DNA of 64,000 nucleotides from Coniochaeta sp. PMI_546 (taxonomy: Eukaryota > Ascomycota > Sordariomycetes > Coniochaetales > Coniochaetaceae). Location of the stretch: assembly GCA_021432605.1 (NCBI GenBank), contig MU271145.1:372001-436000 (forward strand). Reading direction: 5' to 3'. A program made the position numbers and the translations under genes. Shown here in pieces: positions 24,036 to 24,633 of the stretch. Numbering within the stretch: the stretch's first letter is position 1; every line of letters begins with the position of its first letter. The notes beneath the pieces were generated by a model. That model was not told the DNA's origin. It made no database searches and worked only from the letters and a program-made list of their open reading frames with translations.

Positions 24036-24633
24036 ATATCTAATCGCGTAGAAAAATCCTCTAAGGAAAAGTTAAAGAAAACTGAATAATATTATCGTCT
24101 AACCGTTATAATCGACGAACTAGGTTTCGAAATTATACCTTACTTATTTTGTTATTTTCGAAGGATAAAATATAAAATATTAAAAGGTATAACGCGATAT
24201 AACGAATATATTCGTCGCGGTCGGTCTTACGACGGTTTAAAGGTTTCGGTTTCCTTTCGTAAGTCCGATAATCCGAAGAAAACTTCGTCGTATATTAATA
24301 AAAGTAGTTTCTCGTATTATCCAAAAATCTCGTCGCCTAGACCGGGAAGAGTCCGACGTTAAAAGCCTCCTTCGCGAACGTCGCGAACGACTTTTCTAAA
24401 CGTAACGAAAATTAGATAAATCTTTATTACGTTTCGAACGTTTTCGGTAATAAAAACGTTCGTTAATATCCCGAAAAGCCTTTATAATTTCTTAAGATCT
24501 ATAAAATCTTAACGATTTAGACGAAACAAATCGTTAAAAATCCGACGTAATAATCGACGTATAATTTTTTAATACTTTTAACGTAGTTGATTAGAACGCC
24601 GTTTTTAGTAATAGTTTATTAGAAACGGGCTAA
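24036..24633 (+). pseudogene. Antisense cysteine-rich coiled-coil ORF of Gypsy-B
   Basis: Plus-strand ORF inside the reverse-strand element, between the 3' LTR and the end of pol. It starts with ATA TCT AAT CGC (Met-Ser-Asn-Arg if ATA was ATG), parallel to the Gypsy-A version. A cysteine motif follows near 24135-24217 (PYLFCYFRRIKYK, then TRYNEYIRRGRSYDG), in which most Cys are now Tyr, as RIP produces. A one-frame shift near 24225-24260 precedes a long charged coiled-coil part (RERRERLF, RFRQQKRSL, LNDLDE). The RxRxQK and LxxLxE spacing matches the Gypsy-A ORF. TAA at 24631 is the first stop in that frame that I take as the end; it could itself be a mutated CAA. Function unknown. Confidence 0.6.

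What the first reader, a model, noticed from the sequence alone, without database searches (positions are those of the whole stretch)
24036..24633. Homologous antisense ORF in the second, distinct Gypsy family
Gypsy-B carries its own antisense ORF in the same place, in both copies (24036-24633 and 22365-22962). It shares with the Gypsy-A ORF the start pattern M-S-(D/N)-R (ATG now ATA), the motif R-(C/Y)-x-E-(C/Y)-x-R-x-G-R-S-x(0-1)-(C/Y)-D, and a downstream coiled-coil element R-(L/F)-R-x-Q-K with a later (I/L)-(E/N)-(E/D)-L-(E/D). LTRs of the two families share nothing beyond their terminal bases, so retention of this ORF in both suggests selection over a long time. One frameshift separates the Cys motif and the coiled coil in the copy at 24036.
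Basis: partly seen in the sequence, partly recalled or inferred. Interest (0 to 1): 0.85.

Follow-up and report, generated by a model that had tools for sequence, protein, structure and literature searches.

The report
Retrotransposon antisense gene, swappable DNA-binding module
Two families of fungal jumping genes carry, back to front near one end, related genes for a small Gal4-like protein; in one family the DNA-binding half of that gene is swapped between copies together with matching symmetrical sites in the element's own control region, as if each type recognised only itself.

Summary
Gypsy-B carries an antisense gene between pol and the 3' LTR, homologous to the Gypsy-A one (profile-profile probability 99.6, E 2e-23). 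The reported frameshift is best read as a 49-nt intron (24259-24307): exon 1 and exon 2 match residues 2-72 and 75-168 of one Thermothelomyces protein. The gene runs to about 24732, not 24633. The protein is a six-cysteine, Zn2Cys6-like cluster plus coiled coil; for one of two models all 13 listed PDB entries are, as I know them, Zn2Cys6 DNA-binding domains, at low Z. Beyond the finding: Gypsy-A copies with almost no transversions in gag-pol differ by 17-27% transversions in exactly the Zn-cluster half, and by 16-37% in about 60 bp of LTR U3. Both types agreed in 44 of 46 copies where both could be typed, of 89. Each U3 type is two 34-bp units with a GATNNN-N11-NNNATC dyad whose arms co-vary. 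Inference: a self-encoded, type-specific LTR-binding regulator, most likely an autorepressor (heteroimmunity-like). Antisense extra genes are known (brtn, plant Retand); exchangeable protein/site pairs were not found in my searches. DNA binding is untested, and no such dyads were found in the Gypsy-B LTR.

The parts
24036..24258 (+). Gypsy-B antisense gene, exon 1: ISNR start (ATA), six Cys/Tyr positions CX2CX6CX8CX2CX6C (most now Tyr), RYNEYIRRGRSYD
   Evidence: P0022 residues 2-72, E 3e-18; open part 24090-24257 against P0022 E 7e-16
24259..24307 (+). predicted intron, 49 nt, GTAAGT...TATTAAT...TAG
   Evidence: GT in 19 of 21 copies, GTAAGT in 14, final AG in 12 (AA in 9); 14 transversions in 49 sites against L041
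24308..24732 (+). Gypsy-B antisense gene, exon 2: coiled coil, RFRxxK, NLNDLDE, acidic/aromatic tail; TGA at 24730-24732; last codons overlap the pol chromodomain
   Evidence: P0022 residues 75-168, E 3e-20; stops
22365..22962 (-). second Gypsy-B copy of the antisense gene, predicted intron 22691-22739 (GTAAAT...TAA)
23484..30802 (-). Gypsy-B element; LTRs 23484-23912 and 30374-30802 (429 bp, 92% identical)
15675..16319 (-). Gypsy-A (type a) antisense frame, ISDR start to TGA at 15677-15675; no intron at the B position
16001..16300 (-). exchange cassette of Gypsy-A, type a: Zn-cluster and first part of the coiled coil, ends at RLRVQKK (16016-15996)
   Evidence: 17-27% transversions between types a-d; genome copies
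16500..16620 (+). U3 of the Gypsy-A 3' LTR with the variable two-unit dyad segment (variable core about 16535-16602)
10130..10250 (+). the same type-a U3 segment in the 5' LTR of that element
   Evidence: 90% identity
5675..6300 (-). Gypsy-A copy 1, antisense frame of type e, heavily RIP-degraded; its 3' LTR U3 is of type e
39117..39440 (-). Gypsy-A copy 3, type d cassette (71% identity)

Best explanation
The antisense gene encodes a small dimeric DNA-binding protein: a Zn2Cys6-like cluster, a coiled coil and a short acidic/aromatic tail. It binds symmetrical sites in the U3 of the element's own LTRs. In the 3' LTR these sites lie upstream of the antisense gene itself; in the 5' LTR they lie in the sense promoter region. 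The protein would so control both itself and gag-pol, most likely as a repressor that limits further transposition. New specificity types (new Zn-cluster half plus new dyads) would escape repression by resident copies, as heteroimmune phages escape each other's repressors; that would explain why several types coexist on one young gag-pol backbone. The antisense orientation lets the B gene keep an intron, because the sense genomic RNA does not show its splice sites. Shown here by computation: homology, intron-like interval, selection on the protein, exchange of the cassette, agreement of cassette and U3 type, co-varying dyads. Inferred: splicing, zinc binding, dimerisation, binding to U3, repression. 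For Gypsy-B itself only homology, the intron-like interval and selection are shown; the U3 part is carried over from Gypsy-A.
Confidence: 0.55

Rival explanations
1. Same protein and same U3 sites, but the protein activates the LTR promoter rather than repressing it.
For: Most well-known Zn2Cys6 proteins are activators (recalled); relatives keep an acidic/aromatic tail with a conserved Trp.
Against: An activator gives no obvious gain from new specificities, yet five types coexist on nearly one gag-pol backbone.
Confidence: 0.2
2. The U3 segment varies because different host transcription factors are used; the cassette goes with it only by physical linkage, and the antisense protein does something else.
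For: U3 variability among subfamilies is on record for the plant element Tnt1 (listing only). Cassette and U3 are some 200 bp apart.
Against: The bridge between them is nearly unchanged, each type's two units and dyad arms change together, and the coding half alone is exchanged against its own C-terminal half.
Confidence: 0.15
3. The protein binds elsewhere: it serves nuclear entry, integration targeting or counter-silencing, as suggested for plant antisense proteins.
For: Nuclear localisation is reported for the Grande protein and a regulatory role is proposed (passages).
Against: It does not explain the agreement with U3 type or the dyads.
Confidence: 0.07
4. The antisense transcript, not a protein, is what matters (double-stranded RNA).
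For: Discussed for plant elements (passage). Both window copies carry stops.
Against: Third-position bias of transversions, 102 database relatives, six conserved Cys.
Confidence: 0.03

Closest known systems
brtn of Boty-like Gypsy elements in Botrytis cinerea (Zhao et al. 2011, Virology 417:248; not held; title seen in reference lists)
   Same: Extra gene antisense between pol and 3' LTR of a fungal Ty3/Gypsy element (passages in PMC8365987, PMC7264820, PMC4227169)
   Different: BRTN sequence could not be obtained, so homology is untested; I saw no Zn cluster, intron or exchangeable type described for it in the passages read
Antisense ORFs of plant Retand/Grande/RIRE2 elements (PMC11963269, PMC7264820, passages)
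   Same: Antisense between pol and 3' LTR; predicted DNA binding (TRP28) and a regulatory role proposed
   Different: TRP28 domain in flowering plants against a Zn2Cys6-like cluster here; no paired exchange with LTR sites in the passages read
Zn2Cys6 transcription factors (Gal4, Put3, Hap1, Ppr1, Leu3)
   Same: Six-Cys cluster, linker, coiled coil; an 11-bp spacer between half-sites is that of the Gal4 site (recalled)
   Different: No large regulatory domain; A-type has CX2CX7C in the first loop; half-sites are not CGG; encoded by a retrotransposon
HBZ of HTLV-1 (search listing only)
   Same: Antisense gene of a retroelement for a dimerising nuclear regulator that lowers sense transcription
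   Different: bZIP factor, not a Zn cluster; no exchangeable types known to me
Ty1 copy number control, p22/p18 (search listing only)
   Same: Self-encoded factor limiting a fungal LTR element, with specificity and recombination between subfamilies
   Different: p22 is a Gag fragment acting on particles; here a DNA-binding protein is proposed to act on transcription

Membership tests
Zn2Cys6 binuclear cluster (PF00172) | six Cys, CX2CX6CX5-12CX2CX6-8C (pattern recalled) | tested here: met
   P0023: C32 C35 C42 C51 C54 C61, near-invariant over 57 sequences. A-type members have CX2CX7C in the first loop, one residue off the pattern.
Zn2Cys6 binuclear cluster (PF00172) | Pfam gathering score | tested here: inconclusive
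   P0001 14.9 and P0023 12.2 bits against 21: not met for these; 11 of 57 match at E up to 1, best 7.9e-5, bits not shown. Hence 'Zn2Cys6-like', not filed as PF00172.
Zn2Cys6 binuclear cluster (PF00172) | fold of two short helices around two Zn | tested here: inconclusive
Zn2Cys6 binuclear cluster (PF00172) | binds two zinc ions and DNA | not testable with these tools
   needs protein
brtn-like antisense gene of fungal Gypsy elements | antisense gene between pol and 3' LTR | tested here: met
brtn-like antisense gene of fungal Gypsy elements | sequence homology to BRTN | not testable with these tools
   BRTN sequence not held; no record named BRTN among the rows
Ty3/Gypsy chromovirus | chromodomain at the end of pol | tested here: met
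   EYEVKIIFDFRKRGY...KGYKDSENI read by eye in the sense frame, 24793-24668
HBZ-like antisense factor | bZIP domain | tested here: inconclusive
   No bZIP family among the 25 of 120 Pfam families shown for 57 relatives; a six-Cys cluster instead. Only 'works like' is considered.

The most novel reading that the evidence does not exclude
Fungal LTR retrotransposons have heteroimmunity: each element type encodes, in antisense, a Gal4-like repressor that recognises only the dyads in its own LTR; repressor half and operators are exchanged as matched specificity cassettes between elements and across species, giving coexisting immunity groups in one genome.
Probability: 0.35. Interest if true: 0.93.

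Novelty: new variant of a known kind. Interest (0 to 1): 0.8.

Why it matters
What antisense genes in LTR retrotransposons do is described as unknown in the passages read. Here the sequences point to a specific, testable answer: a DNA-binding protein and its own target sites, with natural type variants that serve as built-in specificity controls. If right, it is a copy-control system of retrotransposons built like phage repressor and operator, and a source of natural Gal4-like specificity variants. Counting only transversions separates real exchange from RIP decay without any reconstruction of an element.

Tried and rejected
Frameshift as a defect of one copy: rejected, because the frame change sits at the same place in the 21 copies aligned and follows the length of the GT...AG stretch: 49 nt puts the coiled coil in frame 1, 50 nt in frame 2 (L005, L050), 51 nt in frame 0 (L041) (L048, 44 nt, was not resolved by my pattern). 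A 3' splice site at 24340 (82 nt) gives the same frame, but homology from 24310 on favours 24307.

RIP as the cause of the differences between Gypsy-A types: rejected, since RIP makes transitions only. Selection on amino acids alone in a young element: rejected, because third-position transversions also differ in the cassette while gag-pol has almost none. U3 repeats or dyads in Gypsy-B: none found; but the simple scan also failed to exceed shuffles for Gypsy-A type a, so this absence is weak. Foldseek with the P0023 model: nothing significant. First direct protein search: one relative only. Ungapped unit similarity was clearly higher within than between types for c and d, not for a and b; the phase-aligned tests are the ones quoted. 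A tree of RT against ORF was not built. Rows dropped before the count: 2 of 17 and 8 of 15 (matches of one type's query to places of type a, and one 45-nt piece), 8 of 37 and 7 of 24 (weak U3 matches, 72-80% identity, several of them places matched better by another type's query).

Literature: no paper describing a Zn2Cys6-like antisense gene or paired cassettes was found in the listings; the library lacks most subscription papers.

Full report
OBSERVATION. The window lies in a 33.5-Mb, 24-contig genome. Bases 1-40,000 are RIP-degraded: (CA+TG)/(AC+GT) is 0.05-0.12, 0.47 for the Gypsy-A copy at 10062-16922, and 1.20 for 41-64 kb. Gypsy-B lies on the minus strand at 23484-30802 with LTRs of 429 bp, head to head with a partial copy. 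The stated frames exist. DNA of the feature has 24 matches in the genome, 21 of at least 580 of its 598 bases and 3 partial. I read those 21. Each window copy has 10 stops as read in one frame.

HOMOLOGY. The Gypsy-A antisense frame found one relative, P0001 of Coniochaeta. An alignment with X at stops found 32 and a wider one 102; in both, only about 8,000 candidates were scored. Named ones include Pyricularia, Colletotrichum, Cordyceps, Thermothelomyces and Staphylotrichum; many come from metagenomes. P0022 and P0023 are of the Gypsy-B type. Window exon 1 matches P0022 at E 3e-18 and exon 2 at E 3e-20; the remaining frames give nothing better than E 2.2 against the six proteins tried. Fifteen A-type database proteins alone against P0022/P0023 alone give probability 99.6, E 2e-23, and a third clade joins both (98.9 and 98.5).

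THE INTRON. Between Cys motif and coiled coil lies GTAAGT...TATTAAT...TAG, 24259-24307, 49 nt, whose removal joins the two frames. Of 21 copies GT is kept in 19, GTAAGT in 14 and the final AG in 12 (AA in the other 9). The length is 49 nt in 17 copies, 50 in two, 44 in one and 51 in the sister copy L041, and the frame of the coiled coil follows it where checked (L005 and L050 frame 2, L040 frame 1, L041 frame 0). Against L041 the stretch has 14 transversions in 49 sites, exon 1 has 6 in 223 and exon 2 has 25 in 333; P0022 residues 2-72 and 75-168 lie on either side. Gypsy-A has no interruption there. Splicing itself was not observed.

SELECTION. RIP makes only transitions, so I counted transversions. 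By codon position 1:2:3 they are 1:1:4 in exon 1 and 5:0:17 in exon 2 (window copy against L041; three other copies give nearly the same), and 109:100:184 summed over six pairs of A types (the pairs are not independent). The frame has been under selection as a protein.

EXCHANGE CASSETTES IN GYPSY-A. Four copies (a window 10062-16823, b L055, c L056, d L054) align nearly end to end. In 200-nt windows over gag and most of pol, transversions are 0-1.5% (c: up to 4.5% between 14262 and 15861, so its exchanged tract is longer or older), while transitions, as RIP makes them, are 3.5-21.5%; the 5' LTR U3 differs too, 8-11% for a against c and d, 0 for a against b. Two sharp exceptions lie at the 3' end: 16001-16300, the Zn cluster and first coiled-coil part, 17-27% transversions; and 16540-16600 in the 3' LTR U3, 16-37%. 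The bridge 16300-16480 has 0-6 transversions in all (the higher counts from type d at its LTR end).

AGREEMENT OF TYPES. Searching the genome with each cassette and each U3 segment left 89 cassette matches after dropping 10 cross-type or fragment rows. 46 had a typed U3 next to them and 44 agreed (17 a, 12 b, 5 c, 10 d); 2 disagreed; the margins alone would give 13. 43 had none typed, partly because the U3 searches for a and d scored only 40 of 91 and 40 of 73 candidates. For the distant 5' LTR 37 agreed, 5 disagreed and 47 were untyped. Copies are related by descent and the segments are some 200 bp apart, so this is agreement, not proof of function. A fifth type e, recognised by its protein in L031 and in window copy 1, has its own U3 type: no transversion between those two copies in 61 sites, 12-23 against a-d. 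The 5' LTR of copy 1, however, matches type d (84.5%). In database proteins the cassettes a and d sit on another C-terminal half: P0005 with a, N half 83% and C half 54%; P0009 with d, 76% and 53%; P0005 with P0009, 47% and 81%; a with d here, 45% and 83% (36 proteins with both halves, 630 pairs). That is recombination, and it reaches beyond this genome.

THE U3 SITES. Each type's variable U3 segment is two tandem units of about 34 bp. Across ten units (five types, one observed allele each, one with a gap) the best six-pair dyad of all axes scanned has an 11-bp spacer, GATNNN-N11-NNNATC, with 48 of 60 cells complementary (0.80; highest of 400 shuffles 0.517). The type-specific triplets co-vary, 23 of 30, permutation p 0.00015. 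Unit 1 pairs best with unit 2 of its own type, rank 1 of 120. The register was set by eye before the test; type e was found after the idea arose and is included; type d fits poorly. An 11-bp spacer is that of the Gal4 site (recalled). In a simple scan of whole LTRs, types c and e exceed all 300 shuffles, type a does not, and the two Gypsy-B LTRs have no such dyad.

MECHANISM. Shown: a conserved antisense protein, Zn2Cys6-like by motif and model; exchange of its DNA-binding half; matched, symmetrical, type-specific sites in U3. Inferred: the protein dimerises and binds those sites. In the 3' LTR the sites are upstream of its own gene and in the 5' LTR in the sense promoter region, so autoregulation plus control of gag-pol follows from the anatomy. 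Repression is preferred over activation because escape from a resident repressor explains why new pairs of protein and site spread; this step is the least certain.

KNOWN AND NEW. Antisense genes at this place are known from Botrytis (brtn, passages; original paper not held; a Monilinia transcript resembling BRTN is mentioned in a passage) and from plants, where a regulatory or DNA-binding role has been suggested (passages). New here, as far as the listings go: the Zn2Cys6-like identity, the antisense intron, and above all the exchangeable pairs of DNA-binding half and LTR dyads. HBZ, Tnt1 and Ty1 p22 are comparisons seen in listings only.

Noticed in passing
contig ends of the host genome, e.g. 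L060 (C20 end), L061 (C17 start); list: A type-d LTR piece lies within 400 bp of a contig end in at least 16 of the 40 rows listed; 18 rows give the same score, and the two read are not RIP-degraded by eye. It looks like part of a subtelomeric repeat.
   Followed up: partly
Gypsy-A LTR U3 of types a-e, just before the dyads (window 16522-16533): GTCACGTGAC, a CACGTG palindrome (partly RIP-changed in some copies), is kept next to the variable segment in all types: possibly a host factor site.
   Followed up: no
L055 185-6961; window 1-6900: Elements with mismatched LTRs: copy b has a type-a 5' U3 and a type-b 3' U3; window copy 1 has a type-d 5' U3 and a type-e 3' U3.
   Followed up: partly
21390-25608: Two Gypsy-B 3' ends lie head to head as a near-perfect palindrome: arms of 2096 nt, 88% complementary, 27 nt apart.
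   Followed up: no
P0029, P0032, P0052-P0125: A large clade of relatives, mostly from metagenomes, with regular CX2CX6C loops and an STWGAFEG tail; some carry wrong names such as galactokinase.
   Followed up: partly
41000-64000: Unaffected by RIP, GC mostly about 0.5, with long open frames: ordinary gene territory beside the repeat block.
   Followed up: no
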